From a virus, in IMG/VR virus record IMGVR_UViG_3300010883_000010, positions 1 through 64,000 of that record: DNA of 64,000 nucleotides. One strand, given 5' to 3'. Positions 2,846 through 64,000 of the stretch are shown piece after piece; within the stretch, counting starts at the first letter, position 1, and the number at the start of each line of letters is the position of its first letter. The position numbers and the translations under genes are program-made. The notes under the pieces are model-generated. The model had not been told where the DNA came from. It saw only the letters and a list, made by a program, of their open reading frames with translations, and ran no database searches.

Positions 2846-4285
2846 ATGAAATTTATGGAAGCTTTAAAATCAAAAAACAAAGAGACTGAAAATGGAATGC
2901 CTACTAATTCCACATCTCTTAATAATTGTCTAGATCTATTCTTTAGATCAGGTGCAATGAGAGCATCTTCTCCTATTGAAATAAACACACTTATCACTAA
3001 AGCATTTTCTGAAGATCCTGCCAGGGCAATAAAGATATTATTCTGGGTAAGGGATATTAGAGGAGGAGCAGGAGAAAGAAGATTCTTTAGAGTATCAATG
3101 AGACACCTATCTAGTTTATTTCCTAATAAAATGTCTAAGGTCTTACCTTTAATTCCAGAATATGGAAGATGGGATGACCTAGTGTCCCTTGAAGGGACTA
3201 AAGTAGAAAGACAAGTATTACTTATTATAGAGGGAGCTTTGTTAAACGAGGATGCCCTATGTGCTAAGTGGATGCCTAGAAAGGGAACGTTTGCTAATAA
3301 ACTTAGAAAATACTTAGGGTGGTCGCCAAAACAATATAGAAAAAAATTAGTTGAATTAACTAAGGTTGTTGAAACACAAATGTGTGCCAAAGAGTTTGAT
3401 AAAATAGAGTATTCTAAGGTTCCTTCTTTAGCTATGTCTAGATATGGTAGAGCATTTATAAAAAATGACGAGAATAGATTTGGCGAGTATGTAAAAGACT
3501 TACTTGATAATAAAGATGGAGTTAAAATTAATGCCGGAGCCGTATATCCATATGATGTAATAAAAGGAATGAGAGCAGGAAATGAAGCATCTCAATCTCA
3601 ATGGAATAACCTTCCTAATTATATGGAAGAAAATAAAGAAAGAATTCTTCCCCTAGTCGACGTTTCAGCTTCAATGACCAGTACGTGCGGTGGAAATCTA
3701 ACATGTTTAGACGTTGCCTTGTCACTTGGTTTATATATAAGTGAAAGAAACATTGGTCCATATAAAGATCACTTTATAACATTTTCTGGAGCACCGGAGC
3801 TTCAACATTTATCTGGAGATTTAATGTCAAGATTACAACAATTAGAAACTGCCAATTGGGATCAGAATACTGATTTATCTTTAGTATTTGATTTAATATT
3901 AAATCAAGCAATAAAACATAATATTTCTACAGAAGAAATGCCAACTCAGTTACTAATACTATCTGATATGGAATTTGATGAGGCAGTAGATACTAATTCT
4001 GGATGGAGTGAGGAAATTTCAGATTGGAATCCAAATGCACAGGAAATGATATCTAAAAAATATAATGAGGCTGGATACCAAGTTCCAAATATTATATATT
4101 GGAATATACAAAGTAGAGGTTCAAATATTCCAGTAAAATTTAATGAAGATGGAACTGCTCTAATAAGTGGATTTTCTCCCTCAATATTAAAATCTATTCT
4201 AAGTGGATCTAATATAAATCCATTAGATATAATGGATAATACAATATTTAACGAAAGATATGATAAAATTATTTTAGAAAAATAA
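2846..4285 (+). CDS. DUF2828-like protein: helical repeat region plus vWA (MIDAS) domain
   Basis: 479 aa. The N-terminal half (about 20-240) is helical with DUF2828 hallmarks: RDIRGGAGERRFFR (about 69-82) and PEYGRWDDLV (104-113). The C-terminal half is a von Willebrand A domain with a complete MIDAS: D272, S274 and S276 in DVSASM, T342 in QNTDLS and D374 in ILSDME. The layout of helical repeats followed by vWA resembles TROVE/Ro60 proteins, which bind small structured RNAs; common ancestry with Ro60 is not claimed. Two tandem hairpin RNA units lie directly downstream. The start 2846 is chosen over the internal ATG at 2855 because it is the first ATG after an A/T-rich leader. Confidence 0.8.
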   Translation: MKFMEALKSKNKETENGMPTNSTSLNNCLDLFFRSGAMRASSPIEINTLITKAFSEDPARAIKILFWVRDIRGGAGERRFFRVSMRHLSSLFPNKMSKVLPLIPEYGRWDDLVSLEGTKVERQVLLIIEGALLNEDALCAKWMPRKGTFANKLRKYLGWSPKQYRKKLVELTKVVETQMCAKEFDKIEYSKVPSLAMSRYGRAFIKNDENRFGEYVKDLLDNKDGVKINAGAVYPYDVIKGMRAGNEASQSQWNNLPNYMEENKERILPLVDVSASMTSTCGGNLTCLDVALSLGLYISERNIGPYKDHFITFSGAPELQHLSGDLMSRLQQLETANWDQNTDLSLVFDLILNQAIKHNISTEEMPTQLLILSDMEFDEAVDTNSGWSEEISDWNPNAQEMISKKYNEAGYQVPNIIYWNIQSRGSNIPVKFNEDGTALISGFSPSILKSILSGSNINPLDIMDNTIFNERYDKIILEK

Positions 4286-5379: not shown

Positions 5380-8307
5380 TTAGAAGCTAGGCGTAAATCC
5401 AGTAGAATCTGAACTTAATTGGCCATCAGCTCTAGTAATAGTAATCCTATTAATAAATTTATGAATTCCTCTTGGGAAATTAACTAATACATCAAGTATA
5501 GCTGAGTTATTTTCAATAACCTCAGTCGTATTATTTGAAGCATCAAATATAACTTCGTAAGAAGATAATCCTCTAGCAGCAACTACTGAATCCATATAGT
5601 TTTCAACAATAGTTTTTACTCTTAATCTAGTAATTTCGTCATTGAAATCAAATAAGAAATTAAATAAGATTCTAGCAAGATCTTTTTCAATAGTAGAAAG
5701 ATTATCTCTAACGTGAGCATTATTCAATGCTGAGTTAATCTTCTGATATGCTGTATTATTTGAGAATAATAAGATACCAAACCCTCTTCTCTTAACAATT
5801 AAGTTATGTCCAATAGGCTCTAAGAAATCTCTATCTTCGTTTGTAAGTTCATATTCAACCCCTACTAATTCAGGATCGGTTATAACTCCTCGCTTACCTC
5901 CAGCTACAATCATAAATGGCGTACCATTTTTGAATTTTCTAACATATAAGTTAGAAATATATGCTGCGGGAGGAACTGACATATTTCTATTACCATTTCT
6001 AATTATTAAATTAGGGAAAGTAAAATTAGAATATGACGATAACGGAACTCCATTAACATCTTCTTCAGCAAATGCAAAAGTATAGCTAGGATTCAAGTTT
6101 AAATCTCCTCCTTCAGAAATTAATCTAGCAGAAACAAGTTTATTAGAAGTATCAATAAAGCTTGGATCAACTGATTGTTCAAATTGCTCAATAGATGGAG
6201 AATTTAACAATGCCATTGCTTGTCCGTGCATTGCAGCAAGTTTAGCTAAGTAATATTTAGAGCTAGAAGATATTTCACCCTCATATGTATCTACAATATA
6301 TCTAAAGTCGATTACTTCTTTTCCAGCAAGTGCTTCAGGTATAGATGTATAATCAAATAAGTATGATAATATATCTTGTTGTCTAGCAGCAGTAGAATTA
6401 GGAAGTAACGCGTTTCTAAGTTTAAATCCTGATAAAAATTGTCCTCTAAGAGTATCTACAAAATTATGAATTCCCTTATAAACAGATATCGTATTGTTAC
6501 TAACCTCTAGTCCAGAAATTTCATCAACACTAGGAGCCATCGTAGTAACAGTATATTCTAATCTATATGGACTTAACGTTTCTTTTGATTGAACCGCTAT
6601 AATCTTATAAAGTTTAGTTCTAGTACTTCCAATTGTGTTTCCTTTAATATAGTGATTTACTTTTATAAATTCATCAATTTCTGCTTTATTAGCAGGAGAA
6701 GCAGTCTCTATTCCTAAAATTAATTTATTAGGTTGAACTACTTGAAAATCAGTAAAGTAATTTGTATCTGATAAATCAAACTCTGCTTTAAAGTCTTTTT
6801 CATCAGCATTAATTCTAAAGTTATTCGAGTTTGGTCCCACATAAGAAACCGTACTTTGTTGATTTAATAAACTAGCATCGGAATAGCTTTCAATACTAAC
6901 GTAAGGAACAGCTCCACTATCTAAATTATCAGTAAATTTAGCGTATCCGATTATCGCATTAGAAGCATTTAAAAATTCATCTCCAGATACAATAAATCCG
7001 TTTTTATATGAAACATAAGCATTAGTATCTTTACCTGCAGCATAATAATCATTACCCGATGCAGTTGCAGTAACCAATACACAATCTGCTCCCGTTAAAG
7101 TTCCACCTGCAAGTAATTGTGCTTCAGTAATTGAGGCAGTTTCTACATATATTAAATTACCATCCGCTGGTTTAGTGTAGCTTATTGTATCTAAAAGTGG
7201 TGTAGCTAATACTCCACCCGGTCCTTCACCATCATCTGCTGGTCTTATTGAATCATCGTATCCATGTCCAACAATATCTACTCTATGAGTATCTACTTCT
7301 TGATCTACATATGACGATGTTTCTAAATCAACTAAATCTAGTTTATCAGAATCTAATGAACATAAAATTCCAGTAGATGGAAATAATCTATTAATTAATC
7401 TATCAATTGAAATTGAATTTCCAGATTGATCTATAAAGTCAGGAAGTAAGCATCCCACTGTTCTATTAATAACTTTAATTTCTCTAAGTGCAAAGAATTC
7501 AGTAGATTTATCCTCTTTTAATCCGGTAGGCTCAAAATAAGTAGCATATACTGGATCCTTAGCTAATTTTAGATAATTAGTCCAGTCTCCTGCAACCATC
7601 ATTACTTCAACCATATAGTCTGATATAAAATCATCCTTATGTAAATAAGTTGGGAATTCAATATCTGCGCCAACGGTGCTATACCATTCTTTTGCAGTTA
7701 CATCAAATCCGCTAACATTTGCGCGTCTAACCCATATTGTAGCGTTAGTTTTGCCAGTGTTGCAGAATGATAGTATTTTATTAGATGGTGATGATACCAT
7801 ACCTAGTCCTCCAGGATTAGTAACAAAGTCATCACCTAAGTCTAAATTTTTAGTTCGGTTTAAGTATTCAGAGCTAGCAAACCACAATCTTCTCTTATTA
7901 AAGAAGTTAATAGTTGGCGATTGCTGTGGTCCAGTTAGATTGTTATATGATGATGATTCAGTATTAAAGGTAGTAAAATAAGATTTATCTAAGTTTGTAC
8001 TACCCTCTGTTGTATCAAGAGGCATCACATTTAAAGCAAATACTGGTCCTTCTCTTAAGGCAACCTCTATTGAGCGATGGAAGTAACTCCCCGCTTTTTC
8101 TAATTTAGAGTCAATCATGCCAAATACTGCATTTAATGTTCTAACATCATTAATTAGTACAACAGTATTAAAGGGTCCTACTCTACTAGATCCAACTACT
8201 AATCTACCAGTAGTTAAAGGAAGAGCAACATTTTCGCTTTGATCAATCTCGACGGTATATACTCCGCTAGACTTATAATTATTTAAATTGATCGTTCTTT
8301 CAGCCAT
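5380..8307 (-). CDS. 18: Tail sheath protein gp18
   Basis: 975 aa, longer than T4 gp18 (659 aa). Sheath hallmarks are the N-terminal strand region (GVYTVEIDQSENVALPLTTGRLVVG) that begins gp18-type sheaths, and a conserved C-terminal domain with VVAARGLSSYEVIFDAS and the closing INRITITRAD region, which joins neighbouring subunits in the contractile lattice. The middle (about 130-600) holds large, poorly conserved, surface-exposed insertions. It has its own candidate late promoter and terminator, unlike T4 where 18 and 19 are adjacent; here gp19 is 14 kb away. Confidence 0.85.
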   Translation of the reverse strand: MAERTINLNNYKSSGVYTVEIDQSENVALPLTTGRLVVGSSRVGPFNTVVLINDVRTLNAVFGMIDSKLEKAGSYFHRSIEVALREGPVFALNVMPLDTTEGSTNLDKSYFTTFNTESSSYNNLTGPQQSPTINFFNKRRLWFASSEYLNRTKNLDLGDDFVTNPGGLGMVSSPSNKILSFCNTGKTNATIWVRRANVSGFDVTAKEWYSTVGADIEFPTYLHKDDFISDYMVEVMMVAGDWTNYLKLAKDPVYATYFEPTGLKEDKSTEFFALREIKVINRTVGCLLPDFIDQSGNSISIDRLINRLFPSTGILCSLDSDKLDLVDLETSSYVDQEVDTHRVDIVGHGYDDSIRPADDGEGPGGVLATPLLDTISYTKPADGNLIYVETASITEAQLLAGGTLTGADCVLVTATASGNDYYAAGKDTNAYVSYKNGFIVSGDEFLNASNAIIGYAKFTDNLDSGAVPYVSIESYSDASLLNQQSTVSYVGPNSNNFRINADEKDFKAEFDLSDTNYFTDFQVVQPNKLILGIETASPANKAEIDEFIKVNHYIKGNTIGSTRTKLYKIIAVQSKETLSPYRLEYTVTTMAPSVDEISGLEVSNNTISVYKGIHNFVDTLRGQFLSGFKLRNALLPNSTAARQQDILSYLFDYTSIPEALAGKEVIDFRYIVDTYEGEISSSSKYYLAKLAAMHGQAMALLNSPSIEQFEQSVDPSFIDTSNKLVSARLISEGGDLNLNPSYTFAFAEEDVNGVPLSSYSNFTFPNLIIRNGNRNMSVPPAAYISNLYVRKFKNGTPFMIVAGGKRGVITDPELVGVEYELTNEDRDFLEPIGHNLIVKRRGFGILLFSNNTAYQKINSALNNAHVRDNLSTIEKDLARILFNFLFDFNDEITRLRVKTIVENYMDSVVAARGLSSYEVIFDASNNTTEVIENNSAILDVLVNFPRGIHKFINRITITRADGQLSSDSTGFTPSF

Positions 8308-8420: not shown

Positions 8421-8924
8421 ATGCGAATATTTAAGATCAGAGACGTAAAGACTCCAACAAGAGGAACAAATATGTCTGCTGGGATAGATTTATACATCCC
8501 AAATGATTTTTATATTAAAAAAGGAGATGAACTACATCCTGCTCCTTCGTATGATAAAGACGAACAATCATTAAAATTAGAGCCGGGAGAATCCGCCCTT
8601 ATTCCATCCGGAATAAGAGCAAATGTTCCAAAAGATAGAGCATTAGTTGCTTTTAATAAAAGCGGTGTCTCTGTAAAAAAGAATTTAATGGTTGGGGCAT
8701 GTGTAATAGATGAAGATTATACTGGAGAAATACACATAGATATAAAAAATGTAGGAAATAAAAGAACTTGGATAACATCAGGTGATAAAATAATACAATT
8801 ATTATGTATACCTGTTGATTATGTTGATATAGAAGTCTCTGATTCGGAGTTAGAATGTTTTGGAGATTCAATAAATACGTCAGAAAGAGGCTCCGGTGGA
8901 TTTGGATCAACTGGAACTAAATAA
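8421..8924 (+). CDS. dut: dUTPase (trimeric, Dut family)
   Basis: Hydrolyses dUTP to dUMP, keeping uracil out of DNA and supplying dUMP. All five family motifs are in order: SAGIDLYIP (about 20-28), NKSGVSVKKNLMVGA (about 78-92, motif 2), VIDEDYTGEI (motif 3, about 95-104), GDKIIQLLC (motif 4) and ERGSGGFGSTG (motif 5, P-loop-like tail). 167 aa with a modest insertion after motif 1. It opens the + strand nucleotide and replication operon, divergent from the sheath gene. Confidence 0.95.
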   Translation: MRIFKIRDVKTPTRGTNMSAGIDLYIPNDFYIKKGDELHPAPSYDKDEQSLKLEPGESALIPSGIRANVPKDRALVAFNKSGVSVKKNLMVGACVIDEDYTGEIHIDIKNVGNKRTWITSGDKIIQLLCIPVDYVDIEVSDSELECFGDSINTSERGSGGFGSTGTK

Positions 8925-9212: not shown

Positions 9213-10649
9213 ATGATAATAGGAGTAGAGGTAAAAAATAATAATTTGTTAATCTCATATTATGATGAGAGCGGGAAAATATCATATATAAGTAAGCGAG
9301 TATTAGACCACGAGATATTTAATTGGGTAGAAGCAGATAAGCCATCTATTCTAAAGAATTGGAACGGCAAGAATATAAGAAAGGCGAAATCTGATGAAAA
9401 ATGGCTATCTAGAACTAGATTAGAAGAACTTTTAATAGAAAAGTTATCCCCTTCCGAAATAGAAACCATATATAACAGTGACTATTTTCCTAAGAAAGCT
9501 TTTTTAGATATCGAGATAAAGCTAACCAGTGACGAATTTCCAGATCCATCCCAAGCTAAAATGCCAGTAAATATGATATCTTTTTGTAATGAAGAAGGAG
9601 TAAGCTATGTTTTATCTAATTTAACGTCAGAGGATCATCCAACTGGATTAAGTCAATCTGAAATAGATAAGATGGAAAAAGATGTAAATAATTATTTTGC
9701 AAAAGTTATTCCACATTCAGAAGAAGATAAAATAATATTTGAGGCAGACTTTAAAATAAAACTTAAGCATTTTGATACTGAAAAAGAACTATTAGAATTT
9801 TATTTTCATAAGATATTACCAAAGCAGCCATTTATTACAGGTTGGAATGTAATTGATTTTGACTGGCAATATCTAATGAATCGCGCTAAAAAACTAAAAA
9901 TAGATCCCCTAGCAAATATGGTATCTGATAAAACCTTTTCTAAAAGTCATAAGTTACCAGTTCACGTAGGAATAATTGATTATATGAAATTATTTATGGA
10001 TCCAGGATATAAACCATATAAGGTTGTAGAAAACTATACACTAGATTATATTTCTAGGCTATGTTTAAATACAACTAAATTAAAGCACCCATATAAAAAC
10101 ATGCTAGAGTTTCAAAAGGATGTCCCTCTATTTACTATGTATAATGTCATAGATAATTTACTTGTTAAATTAATAGATGATAAACATAACATGTTAGATG
10201 TTGCCTTTTCGCTAGCAAATGTAGCACAAGTAGAGGTAAATAAAATACAAGCACCCGTTCATATAACTGAAGTATTAATGTGCAGGGAATTTTTAAACAA
10301 GAATTTAAGAATGCTTAAGAAACCATGGAATAGCGGAAATAATCAAAAAAATGAAACTTACGAGGGAGCATATGTAATGCACCCTACTCCTGGTCATTAT
10401 GATTTTGTTGCGTGCTATGATTTTAAATCAATGTATCCTAACATACAAATGCAATTTAATATTTCCCCAGATACTTATATCGGAAAGACAGGAAAATATC
10501 GAGAAACTGGTAGAGAAATAAGAACAAAAAATGAAACCTTATTTTCAAATAAGGAAGACTCAGTAACTCGTACTATTTTAAGTAGATTATATAGTGCTAG
10601 AGTCAAAGCGCAAAATAAAATAAAAAACTTAATTTATAAAAATGAGTAA
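9213..10649 (+). CDS. 43A: DNA polymerase gp43, N-terminal half (exonuclease and palm motif A)
   Basis: 478 aa of family B polymerase. Present: N-terminal domain; 3'-5' exonuclease motifs ExoI (FLDIEI, about 97-102), ExoII (ITGWNVIDFDWQYL, about 206-219) and ExoIII (ENYTLDYISRL); palm motif A (YDFKSMYPNIQMQ, about 408-420). The protein ends in the first fingers helix (RLYSARVKAQNKIKNLIYKNE) at a normal TAA. Motifs B and C are absent here but are encoded at 61477-62886, so the enzyme must assemble from two chains. No intein-like sequence is visible at the end. Split gp43 genes are known in some T4 relatives; the distance here is unusual. Confidence 0.9.
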   Translation: MIIGVEVKNNNLLISYYDESGKISYISKRVLDHEIFNWVEADKPSILKNWNGKNIRKAKSDEKWLSRTRLEELLIEKLSPSEIETIYNSDYFPKKAFLDIEIKLTSDEFPDPSQAKMPVNMISFCNEEGVSYVLSNLTSEDHPTGLSQSEIDKMEKDVNNYFAKVIPHSEEDKIIFEADFKIKLKHFDTEKELLEFYFHKILPKQPFITGWNVIDFDWQYLMNRAKKLKIDPLANMVSDKTFSKSHKLPVHVGIIDYMKLFMDPGYKPYKVVENYTLDYISRLCLNTTKLKHPYKNMLEFQKDVPLFTMYNVIDNLLVKLIDDKHNMLDVAFSLANVAQVEVNKIQAPVHITEVLMCREFLNKNLRMLKKPWNSGNNQKNETYEGAYVMHPTPGHYDFVACYDFKSMYPNIQMQFNISPDTYIGKTGKYRETGREIRTKNETLFSNKEDSVTRTILSRLYSARVKAQNKIKNLIYKNE

Positions 10650-10785
10650 TATTAATATACCTTACGCTGGAACTACTTATAATTATCCAGCAATACAGAT
10701 AGTGTCAAAACTAAATAGTAAAAAAGTAGTTAAAAATGATAAAGAAATTGTCAAGTTGGCTAGACCAAATAAGAAGCAAATTTAA
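10642..10785 (+). CDS. Small hypothetical protein, 47 aa
   Basis: ATG at 10642 overlaps the last 8 bases of the polymerase N-half; the frame ends at 10785 after Lys-rich codons. It overlaps the following gene by 50 bases if that gene starts at 10736, or not at all if that gene starts at its internal ATG 10802. Not recognised; supported only by tight coupling to the polymerase stop codon. Confidence 0.45.
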   Translation: MSNINIPYAGTTYNYPAIQIVSKLNSKKVVKNDKEIVKLARPNKKQI

Positions 10786-11464
10786 AAAAAATAACAAAGT
10801 TATGTTTTCAGAAGAAAAATTAATAAACTATAAACAGAACTTTACGGGAGTAAAGTTTCAATGGATTAAACCAGACGATCCTTCAAAGTTAGGAACATTA
10901 GTAACATGTAAAGAGATATTCCCAAAAGGGAATGATATAATTGCAAAATTCGATGATGGGTCCACATGTTTTGCAAGTCAAATTACTAAAAATCTTCTTA
11001 TGATACAGGGAGATATGCCTCCTTTGTCTAAAGAAGAAGTGGCTTCAATATATGGATCAAAGAGATCAGTAAATTCTATTCCAACTGAGCCTTCTGTGAA
11101 GGATACTGTATATTTTGATACTCCTAATAAGAATGGAAATAATCAAAAGGCCGCGGCGCCTCCACTAAAGTCAACCCAGGATAATCCATTTAAAATGTTT
11201 AATTCTGAAGAAACAAATCTATCTATAAAACTAAAAATAAATTTACCAGATAAGAAATTATTAAAATTAATGTATAATAATGCAGAAGATAAAGAGGTAT
11301 TTTTAAAACAGCTTTCTGGTTTTGTATTATCAATGATAAATAATAAAGTAGTTAAAGAGTCAATGCTTGATATGTTTGATCCTAAGCTTAAAGCTAAACC
11401 TATAACTAAATCAAAAGTTAGTAAAAAACCTAGCATAAAAGTAACAGAAGTTAAAAATGGATAA
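10736..11464 (+). CDS. Hypothetical 242-aa protein
   Basis: Not recognised. Residues about 35-85 look like a small beta domain (GVKFQWIKPD, then GTLVTCKEIF and FDDGSTCFASQI). A disordered linker rich in Pro/Ser/Asn follows (about 100-160), then a helical C-terminal part (about 165-215) and a very basic tail. The alternative start is ATG 10802 (residue 23), which would avoid overlap with the 47-aa ORF. It overlaps the next gene by 8 bases. Confidence 0.65.
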   Translation: MIKKLSSWLDQIRSKFKKNNKVMFSEEKLINYKQNFTGVKFQWIKPDDPSKLGTLVTCKEIFPKGNDIIAKFDDGSTCFASQITKNLLMIQGDMPPLSKEEVASIYGSKRSVNSIPTEPSVKDTVYFDTPNKNGNNQKAAAPPLKSTQDNPFKMFNSEETNLSIKLKINLPDKKLLKLMYNNAEDKEVFLKQLSGFVLSMINNKVVKESMLDMFDPKLKAKPITKSKVSKKPSIKVTEVKNG

Positions 11465-12056: not shown

Positions 12057-13250
12057 ATGGCAAATACTAAAGATTTAATGTCGGCTTTCAGTAGATTTAA
12101 CGATAATCTTGAAAAACACACAAAGAAAAGAGTAAAACTTAGAGGATTCTCTGATGTAACTGAATATATTGATACCGGCAATTATTTATTGAATGCACAA
12201 ATGTCCGGCTCTCTTAGGGGAGGATATCCGAATGCTCGAAGCTTAGGAATAGGGGGAGATTCAGGAACGGGTAAGACCTTTCTATGCTTAAACGCTATAA
12301 AAAATGCACAAGCCATTGACTATGCCGTATTCTATATAGATACAGAAGGAGCATTAGATAGCAATGATTTTGAAAATTTTGGAGTAAACATGGACCTATT
12401 GAATTACAAAAGAATAGGTATTATATCAGAGGTAAAGTTTTTTATTAATGATATAATTAAAATGGTGGAAGAAAATCCAGGACTAAAGATAATGATTATT
12501 GTAGATTCGCTTACTCACTTAGAAACTAATAAAGAAGTTGACGACATTACTAAAGGAAGTAACGCTCAAGATATGGGATTAAGAGCGAAAGAATTAAGAC
12601 AGCTATTTAAATCATTTACGTTAGATTTGTCTAATTTAAAAATACCTTTAATATTTACTTCTCATACATATGCGAGTATGGATCAATATACCCCAAAAGC
12701 GATGAGTGGAGGGGCAGGTCCTTTATATGGAGCATCAGTAGTTATGATGTTGTCTAAGGGACATTTAAAAGATGATAGTAAAACAAAAACAGGAGTAATT
12801 GTTAGAAGTCAAACGGATAAAAATAGATTAGCTAAGCCAGATAAAATTGAGTTTCACATTAGCTTTCACAAAGGAATGAATCCATATGTTGGATTACAAG
12901 ATTATATTAGTTGGGAAAACTGTGGAGTAGGTAGAGGAAATAAGCTGACTGAAAAGGAATTTAGTAAATTAAAAGGAGCTGAATCTGATAAGTGTAATAA
13001 ATTTGAAGTAGATGGAGAAACACTCTACTTTTTACCAAAAGAAACAGCAAGAAATTATATAATTAGACACAATGGTGATGTTGTCCCATGGAGGGAAATA
13101 TTTACTAACAAAGTGTTTATAGAGCCAGTTCTAGATGAGTTGGACAAAAACGTAATAATCCCTAAATTCAAATATAGCTCTCTTGCTGAAGTTGAAAACG
13201 ATGAATTATCTGATTTAGAACAAATGGAAGGTAATGATTCTAACGACTAG
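12057..13250 (+). CDS. uvsX: UvsX, RecA-family recombinase
   Basis: Forms presynaptic filaments and drives strand invasion in recombination-dependent replication. Walker A GDSGTGKT lies at residues 67-74; FYIDTEGA follows with the catalytic Glu region; Walker B is IMIIVDSLTHLE (about 143-154); loop L1/L2 and the FTSHTY strand follow. 397 aa, close to T4 UvsX (391). The acidic C-terminus (DLEQMEGNDSND) is typical. Start ATG 12057 follows an A/T-rich leader. The partner UvsY candidate is at 43940. Confidence 0.95.
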   Translation: MANTKDLMSAFSRFNDNLEKHTKKRVKLRGFSDVTEYIDTGNYLLNAQMSGSLRGGYPNARSLGIGGDSGTGKTFLCLNAIKNAQAIDYAVFYIDTEGALDSNDFENFGVNMDLLNYKRIGIISEVKFFINDIIKMVEENPGLKIMIIVDSLTHLETNKEVDDITKGSNAQDMGLRAKELRQLFKSFTLDLSNLKIPLIFTSHTYASMDQYTPKAMSGGAGPLYGASVVMMLSKGHLKDDSKTKTGVIVRSQTDKNRLAKPDKIEFHISFHKGMNPYVGLQDYISWENCGVGRGNKLTEKEFSKLKGAESDKCNKFEVDGETLYFLPKETARNYIIRHNGDVVPWREIFTNKVFIEPVLDELDKNVIIPKFKYSSLAEVENDELSDLEQMEGNDSND

Positions 13251-13571: not shown

Positions 13572-15104
13572 ATGATAGATTTTACAGAAAATATAAATTC
13601 ACTAGAGTCAATGGTTTGGAATTTTATACTAAATTCAGAAAACGATATAAATGACATTAGACCACAAAATCACGCGTCTCTTCCTAAAGAAGAAATAATA
13701 CCATTGATTCAACCTAAATATTTCTCTGATGAAACTAGACAGGATACTTATAAATATGCTCTAAAATTCTTTAAGGAATATAGTAAAATTCCAAATAAAA
13801 AGGAATTAAAGAGCTATATTGACTTAAATAATTATTTTCTTGAGGATTCAGACTTTGATGAACTCTATTTCTTTAGTTTAAATGAATATAGTTATGATTA
13901 CTTATACCAATATGTTAAATCATTCGTAATGTTAAGGAACTTAAACTTAACTATGTTTGAGATGTTAGCTTACTTAAAGACAACAGCAGTTAGTCCAAAT
14001 AATATTGATAGTATAACTGAAAAAATAAGAAACGACATAAATAATAATTTATCTGTAAACTTTAGTTCAAATAGTAATGGATTAAATTTCTTTGATCCCA
14101 AATCTCACATACAGATACCTAAATATGGTACTCCAAGTGGATTTGAATTTTTTAATAAAACATTAGGTGGAGGATGGAATCTAAAAACGCTGGTTGTTCT
14201 ACAGGGTAGACCAAAGGTAGGAAAATCTATGGTTTTAGGTAATATTGCAGCACGGGCATTTCTATCTGGAAATAATACTGGACTCGTAACAGTCGAGCTA
14301 GCAGACAGGAGCTATATGAAAAGAATTGGATCAAATATCTTAGGAATTCAAAAAGATGAATACGAAAACATCACGGATGATAATAGAGCAAAACTTGTAG
14401 AAGATAAAATAAATGAATTAAAGGAATCCGGTCAAAATTTAGGATATTTAGAGGTTGTTGAGTTTCCAACTGGAGGAGCAACTGCAATAGACGTAGAAAA
14501 CTACTTTATACGACTAGAAAGTAGGTTAAATAAAAAATTCAAAATTATTGTCGTTGATTACCTAAACTTACTAAAACCAATTAAAGATCAAAATGGTTTA
14601 TATGAAAAGGTTAAAACAATATGCGAAGAACTTAGAGGAGTTGCTATGAGAAATGAGTGGTGTATAATATCAGCTACTCAAATTAGAAGAGAAGATGTAG
14701 AAAACTTTGACTTAGGAATGGATTCAGTTGCTGAATCTTTTGGACTAGTACACACAGTTGATTCTCTATATGGATTAATGAGGAGCCCTCTTGAAGGAAG
14801 AATGAAAATAAAGGTGATAGCAAATAGAGATAATGGGTATGAAGAAAGTTATAAGTTTTATACTATGGAAAAAGATTTCTTTAGATTAACTGAAGAATCG
14901 GGATCTAATAGCGAATATTATAGCGATGATGATGTAGCAGGAGGGTTGCAAGATCAAGTGAGAGAAGAATATAAAAATATTACTCCTGTTATTCCAGAAA
15001 ACGGAACTCACCCTAATTCCATTGAATTAAATGGTGTAGATAAAAAGAAAGATACTAGCGCATATTCTGATGATGAATATGACAAGCTCTTTAACTCTAT
15101 ATAA
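13572..15104 (+). CDS. 41: Replicative DNA helicase gp41 (DnaB family)
   Basis: Hexameric 5'-3' helicase that unwinds the fork and carries the gp61 primase. The N-terminal helical domain (about 1-165) precedes the RecA-like core: Walker A GRPKVGKS (212-219), TVELADRSY, Walker B KIIVVDYLNLLKP (about 323-335), SATQIRRED (H3-like) and DSVAESFGLVHTVDSLYGL (DnaB motif 4 region). 510 aa versus 475 in T4; the extra length is an acidic C-terminal tail ending YDKLFNSI, similar in kind to the gp32 tip. Confidence 0.93.
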   Translation: MIDFTENINSLESMVWNFILNSENDINDIRPQNHASLPKEEIIPLIQPKYFSDETRQDTYKYALKFFKEYSKIPNKKELKSYIDLNNYFLEDSDFDELYFFSLNEYSYDYLYQYVKSFVMLRNLNLTMFEMLAYLKTTAVSPNNIDSITEKIRNDINNNLSVNFSSNSNGLNFFDPKSHIQIPKYGTPSGFEFFNKTLGGGWNLKTLVVLQGRPKVGKSMVLGNIAARAFLSGNNTGLVTVELADRSYMKRIGSNILGIQKDEYENITDDNRAKLVEDKINELKESGQNLGYLEVVEFPTGGATAIDVENYFIRLESRLNKKFKIIVVDYLNLLKPIKDQNGLYEKVKTICEELRGVAMRNEWCIISATQIRREDVENFDLGMDSVAESFGLVHTVDSLYGLMRSPLEGRMKIKVIANRDNGYEESYKFYTMEKDFFRLTEESGSNSEYYSDDDVAGGLQDQVREEYKNITPVIPENGTHPNSIELNGVDKKKDTSAYSDDEYDKLFNSI

Positions 15105-15680: not shown

Positions 15681-16793
15681 ATGTCATTAAGCGGAATACG
15701 AAATATATATCTTTTAGGAGATCTCCACTTAGGCGTACGGAATAACTCAATAGAATGGTTTGAAATTCAAAAATCATTTATATTAGATTGGTTTATACCG
15801 AAAATACTAGAAGATGGCTTTGATCCAGATCAAGACATTTTATTTCAGGCTGGAGATTGGAATCATGTTCGAGAATCAACTAATGTTAGAATATCAAATG
15901 GATCTCTAGAAATATTTAAGATATTATCTGATACTTTTAAGAGAGGAATTCACATCATTCTTGGAAACCATGACGTTTATTATAAAGACAGGAATGATAT
16001 ACACTCTTTAAAAGAGATAAGCTCAATTTTTAATAATATTAATATATATGAACAACCTGAGGCTATAAAAATTAATAGCCACAATATATTGATGCTACCG
16101 TGGGAGCACGACGCAGATATATTATCAAAAACAGTAGAATCCTATGCAAACTCATGTGATTACATATTATGTCATGCAGATATTAAAGATTTTAAATTAA
16201 ATAAATGGGCCAAAATAGAACACGGCCTAGAGTTATCTAAGCTATCATCATATAAAAGAATATACTCGGGACATATACACACCCGTCAAGAACATAAAAA
16301 TGTTTTATATATTGGTACACCTTACCACTTAGATAGGGGAGATGTTGATAACATAAAGGGATTTTATAAGCTAAATTTAGAGGGAGAAAACATAAAAGAA
16401 TATTTCTATGAAAATACCTATTCTCCTAGATACATTAAATACGATATTAATAGTATTATTAATTTAAATATAAAAGAAATCAGATCAATATTTAATAATA
16501 ATTTTGTTGATATCAGTATATCTAACGATTTAGCAAAAACGTTTCCACTTACTAAGTTTTTAGACTTAGTAAAGGATGGACATAGATCAATCGAATTTAG
16601 ACCATATTCTGATACTGAGGAAATAAATATAGAAAAGATAAGTTCAACAGGTACATATGATTATAATATATATGAGGTATTATCAGATTATATTGATATG
16701 AGGGAAATTCCAAAAACATTATCTAATAAGATAATTAATAAGTTTAAGGAAATTCACACTGAACTTAAAAATAACCAAAAATACTATGAATAA
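15681..16793 (+). CDS. 47: Recombination nuclease subunit gp47 (SbcD/Mre11-like)
   Basis: Mn-dependent nuclease subunit of the gp46/47 complex that resects DNA ends. Metallophosphatase motifs are in order: GDLHLG (about 13-18), AGDWNH (about 56-61), LGNHDVYY (about 94-101), a LPWEHD segment, CHAD (about 162-165) and SGHIHT (about 194-199). 370 aa (T4 gp47 is 339). It overlaps the following nuclease gene by 8 bases. Confidence 0.93.
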   Translation: MSLSGIRNIYLLGDLHLGVRNNSIEWFEIQKSFILDWFIPKILEDGFDPDQDILFQAGDWNHVRESTNVRISNGSLEIFKILSDTFKRGIHIILGNHDVYYKDRNDIHSLKEISSIFNNINIYEQPEAIKINSHNILMLPWEHDADILSKTVESYANSCDYILCHADIKDFKLNKWAKIEHGLELSKLSSYKRIYSGHIHTRQEHKNVLYIGTPYHLDRGDVDNIKGFYKLNLEGENIKEYFYENTYSPRYIKYDINSIINLNIKEIRSIFNNNFVDISISNDLAKTFPLTKFLDLVKDGHRSIEFRPYSDTEEINIEKISSTGTYDYNIYEVLSDYIDMREIPKTLSNKIINKFKEIHTELKNNQKYYE

Positions 16794-17359: not shown

Positions 17360-19066
17360 ATGAAGTTTAAGAAGTTAAAGTGGAAAAACTTACTATCCTA
17401 TGGAAATATTATACAGACAATAGAGTTTGGTGATACTCCTAAGCTTGTATTAGTTGAGGGAGAAAATGGAAGTGGTAAATCTTCTATAAAGGAGGCTCTT
17501 ACTATATCCGCCTACGGTAAATCCGCTCTTCGTAAAATGAAGGATATCCCAAATTGGGTAAATAGGTCAGCATATACATATAATGAGTTTGAAACCGATA
17601 AGGGAGATACTGTCATAATTGAAAGAGGAATAGACCCAAATTTTAGTAATATTAAAATAAATGGAGTAAATCATAATCTTCCAGATAAGAGAAAAATAGA
17701 TGAATTTATAGAAAACGAGCTATTTAATCTATCTTTTCCTATTTTTTGTAATACAATAAGTTTATCTTTTGATGATTTTAAGTCATTTGTTAATTTAAAT
17801 GCAAGTGATAAAAGAAAAATAGTTGATCCTATTTTTGGAATAGATATATTATCTGATATGAAATCTAAAGTAAAAGATGACATAAAGGAAAGTAAGAACA
17901 ACCTACAAATAATTGATTCTAGAATATCCGCAAATTCGACACTATTAGAAAAGTCTATATCTCAATTAAAGAAGCTAAGAGAAAAGTTAAATGAAGAAAT
18001 AGAAGATAGGACAGAAGAGATAGGTAAAAGCATATCCGACAATAATATAAAACTATCCGATAAAAAAGAAGAGTTTTTAAAAATTAAAAATAGTATAGAT
18101 GATATTAGATCAAAGGTTGCCACTCTTAGATCAGATATATCTTCATCAAATACTAAAATATTAGAGTATGATAAGAAACTAGATATCTTTAAGAATAATA
18201 GATGTCCACATTGTCTAAGCGATCTAACTGGAGAAAAGACTTTAGAAATAAAAGAAGCAATACTTAAAAAGAAAGAATCAGAATCTGTATTAGTGACGAG
18301 CTTGACTGATAATTTTAATAAATTAAACTCTTCTATATCTAATCTAGTGAAGTCGCAGGAATCTAGCAGAGAAGAGTACTCTATAATTAAATCTGAGATA
18401 ACTTCTTTACAAAAAGAATTAGAAAAAACTCAAAAAGACACCGATAATGACCAAGAAGATTCTATTAATGAAATACTATTAACGATAAAGGGAGAAATAT
18501 CCCAATCTGAGAAAAATAGAGTTGAGCATAGTGAAAATGTAGAATTATATAGTGCTTTAGAAGACGTATTATCTGATACTGGGATAAAGAGAATACTAAT
18601 AGATAAGGTTATACCTCTTTTAAATTCTAGAATATCTGAAATATCTGACCGGCTAGATTTTAAGTTTAATTTCTCATTTGATAACGAATTTAATCCAATA
18701 ATTTTGTATATGGGATTAAATATTTCGCCAGAGAGCCTATCAACAGGGCAAAGGAAAAAAATGAACCTAATTGTTTTACTATCATTCATAGAACTAATAA
18801 AAATGAAACATAGTGGAATGAATACCATGTTTCTAGATGAAATATTTAGCGGATTAGACAAAAAGAATGTATATATGGCAATAGAGATATTAAAAGAGTA
18901 CTCAATTAAGTATAATATGACTATATTTGTAGTATCTCATGAATCTCTTCCAGAAGAATTTTTTGACACCAGGATAAACGTAACAATGCCTAATCATTTT
19001 TCAGAAATAACAATAACATCGAATATAGGAGATAAACAAGAACCTACTAATAGTATTAAAGTATAA
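17360..19066 (+). CDS. 46: Recombination nuclease ATPase gp46 (SbcC/Rad50-like)
   Basis: 568 aa, close to T4 gp46 (560). Walker A GENGSGKS (34-41), then coiled-coil arms (about 165-275 and 290-390) flanking a zinc hook RCPHCLSD (Cys282 and Cys285), then the C-terminal ATPase lobe with the signature LSTGQRKKMN and Walker B MNTMFLDEIFSGLD, followed by the FVVSHE switch. It pairs with gp47 to resect ends for UvsX and helps degrade host DNA. Confidence 0.94.
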   Translation: MKFKKLKWKNLLSYGNIIQTIEFGDTPKLVLVEGENGSGKSSIKEALTISAYGKSALRKMKDIPNWVNRSAYTYNEFETDKGDTVIIERGIDPNFSNIKINGVNHNLPDKRKIDEFIENELFNLSFPIFCNTISLSFDDFKSFVNLNASDKRKIVDPIFGIDILSDMKSKVKDDIKESKNNLQIIDSRISANSTLLEKSISQLKKLREKLNEEIEDRTEEIGKSISDNNIKLSDKKEEFLKIKNSIDDIRSKVATLRSDISSSNTKILEYDKKLDIFKNNRCPHCLSDLTGEKTLEIKEAILKKKESESVLVTSLTDNFNKLNSSISNLVKSQESSREEYSIIKSEITSLQKELEKTQKDTDNDQEDSINEILLTIKGEISQSEKNRVEHSENVELYSALEDVLSDTGIKRILIDKVIPLLNSRISEISDRLDFKFNFSFDNEFNPIILYMGLNISPESLSTGQRKKMNLIVLLSFIELIKMKHSGMNTMFLDEIFSGLDKKNVYMAIEILKEYSIKYNMTIFVVSHESLPEEFFDTRINVTMPNHFSEITITSNIGDKQEPTNSIKV

Positions 19067-59789: not shown

Positions 59790-59990
59790 CTAGTCTCCCA
59801 CATATGCCTTAACCTTTTCTCTTTTACTAGAAATAAGGTGATCTAACTCAGATTTATCTAAAAGACTTTCAAATCTATTATAAAAAAGTTCGACATATTT
59901 TTCTGCACCAGATAGTTGCTCTAGGGTTTCGCAGCTCTCTATTACTTTTTCTGCTTTAACTTTTGCGTTTATTAGTTCTAGAATTTCCAT
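59790..59990 (-). CDS. Small coiled-coil hypothetical protein
   Basis: 66 aa, helical and charged (ELINAKVKAEKVIESCETLEQL). It overlaps the end of the phoH gene by 35 bases in a different frame, so it is probably translated after it. Not recognised. Confidence 0.5.
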   Translation of the reverse strand: MEILELINAKVKAEKVIESCETLEQLSGAEKYVELFYNRFESLLDKSELDHLISSKREKVKAYVGD

Positions 59991-60762
59991 TTCTTTTTCC
60001 GTTTAATTGTTCTTGCTCTTCTATATCGTCAAAAACCTTGATTATTTTTTTAATTATTGGATGACGCTGTACATCATCTCCACTTAATTCAACTATACCA
60101 ATTTCTGGTATATTATTAAAATGCTCTAATAATATTTCTAATGCACTTTTTTGATTTTTATTTACAGATTTTTGAGAAACATCTCCTAAAAATATCATTT
60201 TAGAGCTTGGCCCAATTCTAGTTATCAACGTTCTTAAATTATCTTTAGATATTTGTTGAGCTTCGTCTACAATAACAATTGAATCATCTAAAGTTACACC
60301 TAGAGCGAACTTTATTGGGAGAATATCGATTGCACCACTCGCCCTCAACTCCTGTGTTGCTGCTTTTCCTATAACCTTTTGAAAGTTATGTATAAATGGA
60401 TATATATAAAGCTCCATCTTCTCTTCCATAGTTCCCTTTAAATATCCAATCTCTTCGTCTTTAGGAACATTTACTGACTTAACTAATACTATTCGCTTAT
60501 ATGTTCTAGGTTTTTCCTTTAGTAGTTTTAGGGCCTGTGCACAAGATAAAAAAGTTTTACCGGTTCCAGGAGGCCCTATTACGATAGTTATATCTTTATC
60601 CTTTATGGACTTTATTACTTCTTTTTGTGTTACTGATCTGCATTTAATGCTAACTTTGTTTTCTTTTAATGTTTTATTCATAATTTGATTTTTTCTATCC
60701 TGTTCCCATCCTTCGATCTCCTCGCGTAGCTCTTCATCGGTTAAGCGGTGTTTATTTTTCAT
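59956..60762 (-). CDS. phoH: PhoH-like ATPase
   Basis: 268 aa. Walker A IGPPGTGKTFLS (about 58-69), the PhoH block LVKSVNVPKDEEIGYLKG (about 93-110), Walker B IVIVDEAQQIS (about 166-176), and FLGDVSQKS. PhoH-like genes are common in marine phages; the biochemical role is still debated (RNA helicase/RNase-linked or phosphate-starvation ATPase). Arg/Lys/Asn-rich tail (GKRNGNSRTNKRKS). Confidence 0.88.
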   Translation of the reverse strand: MKNKHRLTDEELREEIEGWEQDRKNQIMNKTLKENKVSIKCRSVTQKEVIKSIKDKDITIVIGPPGTGKTFLSCAQALKLLKEKPRTYKRIVLVKSVNVPKDEEIGYLKGTMEEKMELYIYPFIHNFQKVIGKAATQELRASGAIDILPIKFALGVTLDDSIVIVDEAQQISKDNLRTLITRIGPSSKMIFLGDVSQKSVNKNQKSALEILLEHFNNIPEIGIVELSGDDVQRHPIIKKIIKVFDDIEEQEQLNGKRNGNSRTNKRKS

Positions 60763-60798: not shown

Positions 60799-61410
60799 TT
60801 AGTATATTTTTATAGAAATGACAATACCTAATAATATTTTTAGGTGATGTAAGTGTAAATCATAAAAAGACGTAATGATAGATTCTTCAGTTTTACCATA
60901 TTTATGTTCAGCTGCCTTTATTTTTTTTAGTTTAATATCTTTAATCGATTCGCGGCTAAATGAATGCTCGTTATGCTCAAGTAAATCATCTAATAATTTA
61001 TTAAATGATGATCCGGCAACTAAGCTTTTTCCTATTTTTTTAATAAAGCGTTCACCAATCTTTATGGATTTTAATTTAATATGTAAATCACTAGAATCTA
61101 ATCCGTTATCTAATGATTTTCTTACGTCATCAAATTTTAGAATGTCTACTGAATTATTAACTATAAAATTAATATCGTATGTATAAAATGAAAGGGTTAT
61201 TCTATTATCTTTTCCGGTGTGCAGAAAGTTTACAAAGTCAGGAGCAGCAATTCCGCCTCCACCTGCACTCAAGACAATTGGGTCTATTCCTAAATCGTCT
61301 AAGTAATCGGCTCCCTGTTCTAATGTAATAGTATAATCATCAAAAGGGAAGGACAATAGGAATGGAAATATATCGAATATGCTTGTATCTTTTTTATAAG
61401 CCTTTTCCAT
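60799..61410 (-). CDS. Hypothetical protein under a late promoter
   Basis: 203 aa. The N-terminal half (FPFLLSFPFDDYTITLEQGADYL, LSAGGGGIAAPDF) looks folded, and a helical C-terminal region ends in a hydrophobic helix (HHLKILLGIVISIKIY) that could be membrane-associated. Not recognised. It is preceded by a motif identical to the tail tube promoter, so it is probably a late, perhaps structural, gene. Confidence 0.6.
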   Translation of the reverse strand: MEKAYKKDTSIFDIFPFLLSFPFDDYTITLEQGADYLDDLGIDPIVLSAGGGGIAAPDFVNFLHTGKDNRITLSFYTYDINFIVNNSVDILKFDDVRKSLDNGLDSSDLHIKLKSIKIGERFIKKIGKSLVAGSSFNKLLDDLLEHNEHSFSRESIKDIKLKKIKAAEHKYGKTEESIITSFYDLHLHHLKILLGIVISIKIY

Positions 61411-61433: not shown

Positions 61434-61447
61434 TTTTAATTATTTAT
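61434..61447 (-). promoter_or_regulatory. Candidate late promoter for 61410 gene
   Basis: ATAAATAATTAAAA on the minus strand, identical to the 14-mer at 22253-22266 and also reading TATAAATA. It is followed by AAAGGAGG (an SD-like stretch, about 18 bases before the ATG) and ends 24 bases before ATG 61410, longer than elsewhere. Confidence 0.55.
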
Positions 61448-61476
61448 ATAAGATACGTACAAACAATAAGTAATAT

Positions 61477-62886
61477 ATGGACTTAAGTAAAGAAAAAAAC
61501 ATAAAAAAATTAGGACTTCAACAAGGGGCAATAAAAATTCTTATTAACTCAATATATGGAGCATTTGGAAATAAGTGGTTTTATTTCTATGATCCAGATA
61601 TTGCACAGTCAATTACTCTTCAGGGACAAGATATGATTAAATTTGCAAATCAAGCAATTGACTTCTATTTTAAGAATAGGTGGCATATTGATTCTGAATT
61701 ACATGAAAAATTAGGAATATCTGACAAAACAATAATTCCAATAGAAAAAGATGAAAATATTGCTGTATATACAGATACAGATTCTACATATGTAAACTTT
61801 GGCCCGGCAATAAGATCAATTCAAGGATTAGATTTAACCGAAGACGAGAGCGTAAAGCTAGTTATTGCAATCGATGATAATAGAATTAGTGAATTCTATG
61901 ATAAGGCATTCATAAAATGGTCAGAACGATTTAATACAACAAATAGACAAACATTTAAGCTAGAGAATATATCAACCGAAGGAATATGGATTAAGAAAAA
62001 AAATTATAGCTTACGTGTAGTTTACGAACCTAACCCAAAACAAGAATTATTTCAGTTAAAAGAGCGGTATCTTCTCATTAAAGGATTAGAGCCGATTAAA
62101 TCATCTTATCCAATTTGGGCAAGAGAACATCAAAAGAAATTTCTAGATTACATTATGAAAAATGGTAAAGAGTTTGACTTAGAGGAAGATCTTATTCCAA
62201 TGATAAAGAAAGTTAATGATGAATTCAATACCTTAGATCCGGATGATATAGCTATGAATTTTAATATACGCCAATATGATAAGTATGTGGAAAGCGAAGA
62301 AGACTGTTTATTTAAAAAAGGAGCAACTACTTACCCAAAAGCGGTAATCCATCATAATCACCTAGTTATTAAAAATCAATTAGAAGGAAAATATCCTAAA
62401 CTTAGACAAGGTAACAAAATTAAATTTTTATACTGTGAACCCGGTCCTCAAGAAATAGATGTATTTGCATATAATCCTGGCAACTATCCTGAGGAATTTG
62501 CGCCAGATATTGATACTAGGCAGCAGTTCTTCATATTAATAGTTGAGCCAATTAATAGAATTTTAGGAGCAATTGGACTAAATAAATTAGATGAAAATCT
62601 AAAGAGAGCAGTTGAGTTTAAAACAACTAAAAGTAAAAAACCTCTTACTGATGCACAAAAATATCCGTTTCATGTAATTAATAGCGAAACTTTGGAACAC
62701 GAAGAAGTAGATGAAAAATTCTGGAGCTTAATTGAAAATAAAGATTCAGACATACCGGAAGACATGTTTGATGAATATCTTCAAACTATAACAAGATATG
62801 GATTAAATACAGTTATTCTAATAAACAAGAATTTAACTCCTTATAAAAAAAGAATATCTAAAAAGCTAGAACTTGATGTTTCATAA
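61477..62886 (+). CDS. 43B: DNA polymerase gp43, C-terminal half (fingers, palm motifs B and C, thumb)
   Basis: 469 aa. Begins in the second fingers helix (LGLQQGAIK) and continues with motif B KILINSIYGAFGN (about 20-32), then motif C VYTDTDSTYVNFG (about 97-109) with the catalytic Asp pair, and IWIKKKNYSL (KxY motif). It has its own ATG and upstream gap, so it is a genuine separate gene. Together with 9213-10649 it makes a complete family B polymerase of about 947 aa. No C-terminal clamp-binding motif like T4's was seen. Primase follows with an 11-base overlap. Confidence 0.92.
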   Translation: MDLSKEKNIKKLGLQQGAIKILINSIYGAFGNKWFYFYDPDIAQSITLQGQDMIKFANQAIDFYFKNRWHIDSELHEKLGISDKTIIPIEKDENIAVYTDTDSTYVNFGPAIRSIQGLDLTEDESVKLVIAIDDNRISEFYDKAFIKWSERFNTTNRQTFKLENISTEGIWIKKKNYSLRVVYEPNPKQELFQLKERYLLIKGLEPIKSSYPIWAREHQKKFLDYIMKNGKEFDLEEDLIPMIKKVNDEFNTLDPDDIAMNFNIRQYDKYVESEEDCLFKKGATTYPKAVIHHNHLVIKNQLEGKYPKLRQGNKIKFLYCEPGPQEIDVFAYNPGNYPEEFAPDIDTRQQFFILIVEPINRILGAIGLNKLDENLKRAVEFKTTKSKKPLTDAQKYPFHVINSETLEHEEVDEKFWSLIENKDSDIPEDMFDEYLQTITRYGLNTVILINKNLTPYKKRISKKLELDVS

Positions 62887-64000
62887 AGAAAATTATAAAA
62901 TACAAGATTTTGTAGAAGATTTATTAAAGCAAAGGTTTCCTCGGATTACATTGAAGCAGTCAATAAATGATGAAGATCCTACTAAATTAAATTTTGCATG
63001 CCCATACTGTGGGGATTCGGAAAAAGATAGCTCTAAGAAAAGAGGGAATCTATACTTAAATACTAATTCGTATAAATGCTTTAATGATGGATGTTTAACG
63101 TGGGTTCCGCTCCATAAGTTTGTTTCTAAATTCTCGCTAGAATATTCTTTATATATTCCTAATATAGATATGACTTCTAAAATTCCGTCTATTGACTTAG
63201 GCAATAATAGAGGATCTATAATAGAGGCAATAGTTAATCCTAAAGTAAGAAATAGCTTGCTTGATTTTGCGTATGTGTCTGATAGGTTTTCCTTAATACC
63301 ATGTAAAGATGCGAATCCTAATAGCAAAATAGGAGAGTATGTAAATAGCAGAAACCTTACTGGCCTTCCAGCGTTTGATAAGTCCTGTTATTATGACAGT
63401 AGAGAAAATAAAATATACATATTTAACCTTGATCTTATATCCGGTAAAGTTCTAGGATTAGCCATAAGAAAAATAGACGAGGACGCGTATGGACCGAAAT
63501 ATAATATAAAAAATTATACCGACCTTAAAAAAAATAATATAGTATCTGAAATAGATGAAGATATTTTAAATAAAATAAATGCGATTAATAACTATTTTAA
63601 TATTCTAAATATTAATTTTAATGCTCCAGTAATAGTAACTGAAGGACAAATAGATTCTATGTTTTTAGATAACTCTATTGCTACAACCGGGGTATCTAAA
63701 AGTAAAACAATATTAGGGGCAGTTATTTCTAAAAAGAATGCTAGAATATTATTTGACAACGATAAAGCAGGTAAGCAAGAGTCTTTGAAATTTATAAATC
63801 AAGGATATAGAGTATTCATGTGGTCTAAGCTAATATCTGAGCTGAAAATTAAATATCCTAATAATATTAAAGATATAAACAATATAAAGGATGTAAACGA
63901 TTTATATTCTTTTTATAAAAAGATAAATTATGATATTAGATTTTTAGAGTTCAATGAAATGATATCTAATAATTTTACTGAATCAATGTACGATTTACTA
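62876..64000 (+). CDS. 61: DNA primase gp61, N-terminal part (runs off the window)
   Basis: 375 codons visible, open to the window end. ATG 62876 overlaps the polymerase C-half by 11 bases. The N-terminal zinc ribbon FACPYCGDSEKDS...YKCFNDGC (Cys at about 43, 46, 70 and 75) matches gp61. TOPRIM marks are VTEGQIDSMF (about 256-265) and RILFDNDKAGKQE (about 290-302). With gp41 it primes lagging-strand synthesis. Placing the primase next to half of the polymerase suggests this end continues into more replication genes. Confidence 0.9.
   Translation, partial: MFHKENYKIQDFVEDLLKQRFPRITLKQSINDEDPTKLNFACPYCGDSEKDSSKKRGNLYLNTNSYKCFNDGCLTWVPLHKFVSKFSLEYSLYIPNIDMTSKIPSIDLGNNRGSIIEAIVNPKVRNSLLDFAYVSDRFSLIPCKDANPNSKIGEYVNSRNLTGLPAFDKSCYYDSRENKIYIFNLDLISGKVLGLAIRKIDEDAYGPKYNIKNYTDLKKNNIVSEIDEDILNKINAINNYFNILNINFNAPVIVTEGQIDSMFLDNSIATTGVSKSKTILGAVISKKNARILFDNDKAGKQESLKFINQGYRVFMWSKLISELKIKYPNNIKDINNIKDVNDLYSFYKKINYDIRFLEFNEMISNNFTESMYDLL

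What the first reader, a model, noticed from the sequence alone, without database searches (positions are those of the whole stretch)
9213..10649. DNA polymerase split in the fingers, halves about 51 kb apart
The N-half (exonuclease plus motif A) ends in the first fingers helix at 10649; the C-half (motifs B and C) starts in the second fingers helix at 61477. Both have normal start/stop signals and open neighbours, and no intein or homing endonuclease is visible. Each half sits in a replication neighbourhood: the N-half with uvsX/41, the C-half with the primase. Split gp43 is known in some T4 relatives with small gaps, but wide separation points to a rearrangement that was tolerated because the chains reassemble.
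Basis: partly seen in the sequence, partly recalled or inferred. Interest (0 to 1): 0.78.

Follow-up and report, generated by a model that had tools for sequence, protein, structure and literature searches.

The report
Two-gene phage DNA polymerase, halves 51 kb apart
This T4-like virus of bacteria makes its DNA-copying enzyme as two separate proteins, cut at the tip of the 'fingers' and encoded about 51,000 bases apart; the cut is old and shared by a large group of related viruses (including some of the largest known phages), so it looks like a working two-part enzyme and not a broken gene or an assembly error.

Summary
A family-B (T4 gp43-type) polymerase is encoded as an N-half (9213-10649: exonuclease, motif A, first fingers helix) and a C-half (61477-62886: second fingers helix, motifs B and C, thumb), 50.8 kb apart on one strand. 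No other polymerase-B match exists in the 87.6-kb record. It is not a misassembly: 13 related contigs carry both halves, N before C, 38-67 kb apart, with the same boundaries, down to about 48% identity. The cut is at the fingers tip (RB69 residues 485-557 missing). Catalytic residues are invariant and shared between the chains; both genes are under purifying selection (dN/dS mostly below 0.1). The fingers split forms one clade (97/98) with a sister group (halves 3-7 kb apart), metagenomic huge phages and PAU/MA9V; Lak phages carry it too. Aeromonas phage 44RR split independently at the same spot. In the sister group the C-half lies upstream of uvsX-gp41; here it adjoins primase, so an already split gene was later separated by relocation. 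Most likely the chains form an obligate heterodimer; split gp43 of an Aeromonas phage is the biochemical precedent, and assembly here is inferred. New variant of a known kind.

The parts
9213..10649 (+). N-half of split gp43-type DNA polymerase B: exonuclease domain (D99/E101, D217, Y310/D314), palm motif A (D403..SMYPN), first fingers helix with R463 (= RB69 R482)
61477..62886 (+). C-half: second fingers helix and motif B (K20 = RB69 K560, N24 = N564, NSIYG), motif C (YTDTDS 98-103), thumb, plus a C-terminal extension of about 90 aa (from about residue 380)
8421..8924 (+). dUTPase just upstream of the N-half
   Evidence: PF00692 6.7e-21
10736..11464 (+). unknown 242-aa protein following the N-half; conserved in the clade (41-45% identity in G003 and G002)
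12057..13250 (+). UvsX/RecA-like recombinase
   Evidence: PF00154 3e-16; synteny
13572..15104 (+). DnaB-like helicase (gp41 equivalent)
   Evidence: PF03796 9.5e-18
15681..16793 (+). SbcD/gp47-like phosphoesterase (weak Pfam match, syntenic homologue in sister group)
   Evidence: PF00149 3.7e-4, just below cut-off; synteny
17360..19066 (+). SbcC/gp46-like ATPase
   Evidence: PF13476; synteny
59956..60762 (-). PhoH-like ATPase, part of the divergent unit upstream of the C-half
   Evidence: PF02562 1.7e-57; conserved next to the C-half in G002 and G003
60799..61410 (-). unknown 203-aa protein, divergent from the C-half, conserved beside it in G002 and G003
62873..64000 (+). DNA primase, its start (TTG 62873 or ATG 62876) overlapping the end of the C-half; runs past the window end
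   Evidence: phrog_47 2.3e-23; homologue follows the C-half also in G002 and G003 and a similar ORF in G026

Best explanation
This is the phage's replicative family-B DNA polymerase (gp43 orthologue) made as two polypeptides that must associate to be active. The chain break lies in the loop joining the two antiparallel helices of the fingers. The exonuclease and the first catalytic aspartate (motif A) are on one chain; motif B, the aspartates of motif C and the thumb are on the other, so neither chain should be able to polymerise alone. The two fingers helices, one from each chain, are expected to pack as in the one-chain enzyme and close over the incoming nucleotide. Shown by sequence: the break, its grouping in one deep clade, its conservation, selection on both halves and congruent histories. 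Inferred: heterodimer formation and activity. History (inferred from gene order): an ancestor split gene 43 at the fingers tip; in the sister group the C-half stayed 3-7 kb downstream, before uvsX and gp41; in the window's clade the C-half moved about 50 kb away and became the gene before the primase.
For: Only one N and one C piece in the record, no intact copy. Thirteen contigs with both halves, same strand and order, gaps 37.8-67.0 kb, one match for each half and no unsplit copy seen. All 128 phage N-halves with a stop in the locus end 70-109 codons after motif A, and every C-half with a motif B hit and a 5' end in the locus starts at most 58 codons before it apart from one record where the first Met could not be placed; only cellular archaeal polymerases run through. 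The break maps between RB69 484 and 558. Catalytic residues invariant across 11 N-halves and 5 C-halves. dN/dS 0.035-0.16 for N and 0.018-0.086 for C where dS could be estimated. N and C trees recover the same five groups; the concatenated tree puts the fingers-split forms other than 44RR in one clade, 97/98. Gene order: sister N-nrdB-nrdA-x-C-uvsX-gp41-47-46; window N-x-x-uvsX-x-gp41-x-47-46 with C beside PhoH and primase, also in G002 and G003. Unsplit cyanophage order is 43-uvsX-gp41. Precedent: the review PMC2988022 states that split 43A and 43B of Aeromonas phage 25 co-purify and have polymerase activity.
Against: No biochemical or structural evidence for this phage. AlphaFold models were poor (mean pLDDT 53 and 47; shallow alignments), so the interface could not be modelled. 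The contigs may be fragments, so absence of an intact copy is shown for the contigs and not for complete genomes. PAU/MA9V and RM378 sit on long branches.
Confidence: 0.87

Rival explanations
1. Assembly artefact: the two halves are one gene broken by a chimeric or inverted contig.
For: Metagenomic contig; no reads available to check.
Against: Same boundaries and arrangement in 13 contigs at 48-100% identity from several metagenomes; each half has its own stop or start and conserved neighbours.
Confidence: 0.01
2. The halves are rejoined before action by trans-splicing: a split intein or a split group I intron.
For: Split inteins and introns do occur in phage polB genes (MIJ3, PMC6892783; Aeromonas phage intein, PMC11923092; phage 25 intron, PMC2993671).
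Against: The N-half ends about 15 residues past the conserved fingers residue R463 and the C-half starts about 20 residues before motif B: no room for intein halves. No Rfam match in the 64-kb window.
Confidence: 0.03
3. The halves act separately: the N-half as a free exonuclease, the C-half as a remnant or another enzyme, with replication done by a host polymerase.
For: In RM378 the exonuclease and polymerase domains are separate genes, so a free exonuclease is conceivable.
Against: Here motif A and the first fingers helix are on the N-half and motifs B and C on the C-half, all invariant; selection is similarly strong on both and their trees agree. A lone exonuclease would not need motif A.
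Confidence: 0.03
4. The window's C-half was not relocated from beside the N-half but acquired by lateral transfer from another split phage.
For: The C-half neighbourhood (PhoH, primase) differs from that of the sister group.
Against: N and C trees place the window clade as the same separate group with largely the same inner order.
Confidence: 0.06

Closest known systems
gp43A/gp43B of Aeromonas phages 44RR and 25 (Petrov, Ratnayaka and Karam 2010, read here only through the review PMC2988022)
   Same: T4-type PolB cut at the same fingers-tip position in 44RR; the chains of phage 25 are reported to co-purify and to polymerise.
   Different: Halves adjacent, 49 bp apart in 44RR; 44RR groups with unsplit T4, so an independent origin.
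Split polymerases of Sphingomonas phage PAU, Chryseobacterium phages MA9V, Lak and other huge phages (in GenBank as separate polymerase genes or unannotated; PHROGs 2062 and 1918)
   Same: Same fingers split; PAU, MA9V and three huge phages fall in the same clade (Lak not in the tree); halves 2.4 kb to more than 100 kb apart.
   Different: Other gene orders; several huge phages have the halves on opposite strands; Lak-C1 seems to have the C-half in two pieces.
Rhodothermus phage RM378 polymerase
   Same: Far-T4 phage with its polymerase in two genes about 57 kb apart.
   Different: Cut between the exonuclease and polymerase domains, so motifs A, B and C stay on one chain.
PolB split inteins (phage MIJ3, PMC6892783; Aeromonas phage Aes123, PMC11923092)
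   Same: PolB on two ORFs.
   Different: There protein splicing is expected to rejoin the chains; no intein here.
Split PolB of Methanothermobacter (from memory, not tested)
   Same: Family-B polymerase working as two chains.
   Different: Cellular archaeal enzyme, other lineage.

Membership tests
T4-type family-B DNA polymerase (gp43) | Exonuclease domain with Exo I-III acidic residues | tested here: met
   PF03104 4.9e-15; D99, E101, D217, Y310, D314 invariant in 11 sequences
T4-type family-B DNA polymerase (gp43) | Motifs A, B and C with catalytic aspartates | tested here: met
   D403 in motif A; K20, N24, NSIYG; YTDTDS, all invariant; RB69 gp43 is the best solved relative of both halves
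T4-type family-B DNA polymerase (gp43) | One polypeptide chain | tested here: not met
T4-type family-B DNA polymerase (gp43) | C-terminal clamp-binding peptide | tested here: inconclusive
   Sister C-halves end in ..SSLF or similar, as T4 ends ..SLDFLFG; window-clade C-halves continue about 90 aa or more past that point with no recognised motif
Split gp43A/gp43B of 44RR and 25 | Break at the fingers tip | tested here: met
   alignment
Split gp43A/gp43B of 44RR and 25 | Adjacent cistrons separated by a short intercistronic sequence or homing endonuclease | tested here: not met
   50.8 kb apart
Split gp43A/gp43B of 44RR and 25 | Chains co-purify and polymerise | not testable with these tools
   bench assay needed
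Split gp43A/gp43B of 44RR and 25 | Common origin with those phages' split | tested here: not met
   44RR groups with unsplit T4 at 100/100
Fractured PolB with split intein | Intein halves at the junction | tested here: not met
RM378-type split | Break between exonuclease and polymerase domains | tested here: not met
   RM378 C-gene matches PF00136 41-378 on its own; here the break is at about position 140 of that model

The most novel reading that the evidence does not exclude
A whole deep lineage of T4-like phages, from aquatic phages like this one to Lak and other huge phages, replicates with an obligate two-subunit family-B polymerase cut once at the fingers tip; the two genes have since drifted apart in the genome (2 kb to more than 100 kb, sometimes on opposite strands) and come under different neighbourhoods, making the mobile fingers an inter-subunit joint.
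Probability: 0.72. Interest if true: 0.6.

Novelty: new variant of a known kind. Interest (0 to 1): 0.5.

Why it matters
The fingers are the moving part that closes on each incoming nucleotide, so an enzyme whose fingers are made from two proteins is a natural test of how much covalent connection a replicative polymerase needs there. The clade-wide conservation means that it is the normal state of a large phage group and not damage. It also affects annotation and trees: surveys that drop short PolB fragments, or count one half, would miss or misread these replicases, and a search of open-access papers found none that describes the conserved split.

Tried and rejected
Misassembly: rejected by independent contigs. 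Intein or intron: rejected by lengths, junction alignment and Rfam. Intact copy elsewhere: none in the record. Host by relatives in bacterial genomes: the genome-contig scan found only archaeal polymerases at 23-28% identity and two short 40-residue matches, also archaeal. AlphaFold of each half: low confidence, so not used for fold search. C-terminal extension: no Pfam, PHROG or convincing PDB relative. Apparent 745-aa frame of the C-half in G026: not a fusion, the extra length is mostly open frame upstream of the likely start. Promoter scan at the C-half: not above shuffles. In the N-half tree the T4 row was cut short by my motif rule (22% of columns) and adds little.

Full report
Observation. 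The window holds an ORF at 9213-10649 (478 aa) with a PolB exonuclease domain and the first part of the polymerase domain, and an ORF at 61477-62886 (469 aa) with the rest. They are the only PF00136 and PF03104 matches of the whole 87,618-bp virus record. The C-half ATG is preceded two codons upstream by an in-frame TAA, so the reading frame itself marks the start. A separate 118.6-kb contig carries both halves at 100% identity with a 50.9-kb gap.

Not an accident of one assembly. Searches with alignments of each half found 13 contigs with both: gaps 50.9, 53.6, 53.6, 48.4, 67.0, 52.1, 52.8, 54.1, 57.7, 56.6, 37.8, 48.0 and 47.2 kb (computed from the coordinates), always same strand, N before C, with one N and one C match each. 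All phage N-halves found with their stop (128) end 70-109 codons after motif A, and the C-halves begin no more than 58 codons before motif B where both could be placed; the only sequences that run through are eight archaeal cellular polymerases.

Where the cut is. Profile alignment to RB69 gp43 aligns the N-half up to residue 484 and the C-half from residue 558. N-half R463 aligns with RB69 R482; C-half K20 and N24 align with K560 and N564, residues known (from general knowledge of RB69 gp43) to contact the nucleotide triphosphate. By simple counting RB69 K486 would fall on a nearly invariant Q467, so that contact may differ. In the alignment with one-chain enzymes the break falls in the loop between the two fingers helices. 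Exonuclease and polymerase catalytic residues are invariant across the aligned relatives. dN/dS is 0.035-0.16 for the N-half and 0.018-0.086 for the C-half in pairs where dS could be estimated; many dS values are near saturation, so the closest pairs (L009/L010 0.091, L026/L028 0.018, window/L024 0.056) weigh most.

Neighbours and history. In a sister group at 32-36% identity the same split exists but the C-half is only 3-7 kb downstream of the N-half. In the contig examined in detail, L105, ribonucleotide reductase genes (nrdB, nrdA) and one unknown ORF lie between the halves, then uvsX, gp41, 47 and 46 follow. In the window's clade uvsX, gp41, 47 and 46 still follow the N-half, but the C-half sits beside PhoH and a 203-aa gene (divergent) and directly before the primase; the same block is found in G002 and G003. 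The unsplit cyanophage order is 43-uvsX-gp41. The simplest history is one split at the fingers tip, then relocation of the C-half in the window's clade.

Relatives. A concatenated tree puts the window clade, the sister group, three huge phages and PAU/MA9V in one clade (97/98), apart from T4, cyanophages and 44RR. N and C trees separately recover the same groups. Lak phages have the same split but were not put in the tree. 44RR, whose gene is annotated as split, is broken at the same place but groups with unsplit T4, so the fingers tip has been cut at least twice. RM378 is split elsewhere, between exonuclease and polymerase. In the huge phages the halves are about 10 kb to more than 100 kb apart, in some on opposite strands, and Lak-C1 seems to have three pieces.

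Mechanism. Shown: two genes, two reading frames, a shared active site, conservation, selection, matched histories. Inferred: the chains assemble, with the fingers hairpin made from one helix of each. The precedent is Aeromonas phage 25, whose 43A and 43B products are reported to co-purify and polymerise (PMC2988022). Structure prediction could not help: mean pLDDT 53 and 47.

Novelty. Split gp43 is known, and PHROGs already hold the halves as separate families. Papers on far-T4 phages, jumbo phages, Lak phages, MA9V-1 and PolB evolution, when searched for it, gave no description of this conserved split; a preprint on gut huge phages reports polymerase genes split by endonucleases, a different arrangement (PMC12363816). 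The library holds open-access papers only, so a subscription paper may describe it. I file it as a new variant of a known kind.

Noticed in passing
62602-62883 (C-half residues about 376-469): Window-clade C-halves carry a conserved C-terminal extension of about 90 aa or more where T4 and the sister group end in a clamp-binding-like peptide; no relative found in Pfam, PHROGs or PDB.
   Followed up: partly
61441-61448 (-): A T4-type late promoter motif TATAAATA lies upstream of the divergent 203-aa/PhoH genes, and the longer string around it is kept at that place in close relatives; the motif is rarer than chance in the window (11 against 25.8 expected), as if avoided elsewhere.
   Followed up: partly
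L031, L050, L058 (Lak-C1, MK250029.1, near 162 kb, 391.0 kb and 393.5 kb): The Lak-C1 polymerase appears to be in three pieces: the C-half is itself interrupted; LR756500 may have a similar break (261-aa C fragment).
   Followed up: no
L105:6117-9002: In a sister-group contig the ribonucleotide reductase genes nrdB and nrdA lie between the two polymerase halves.
   Followed up: partly
16786-17358: DNA/RNA non-specific endonuclease gene between the gp47-like and gp46-like genes; a homologue is at the same place in G003 but gave no match in G002.
   Followed up: no
5380-8307 (-): Long tail sheath protein (975 aa), encoded divergently near the N-half.
   Followed up: no
2846-4285: 479-aa protein with DUF7788 and DUF2828, called RNA-binding in PHROGs; role unknown.
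   Followed up: no
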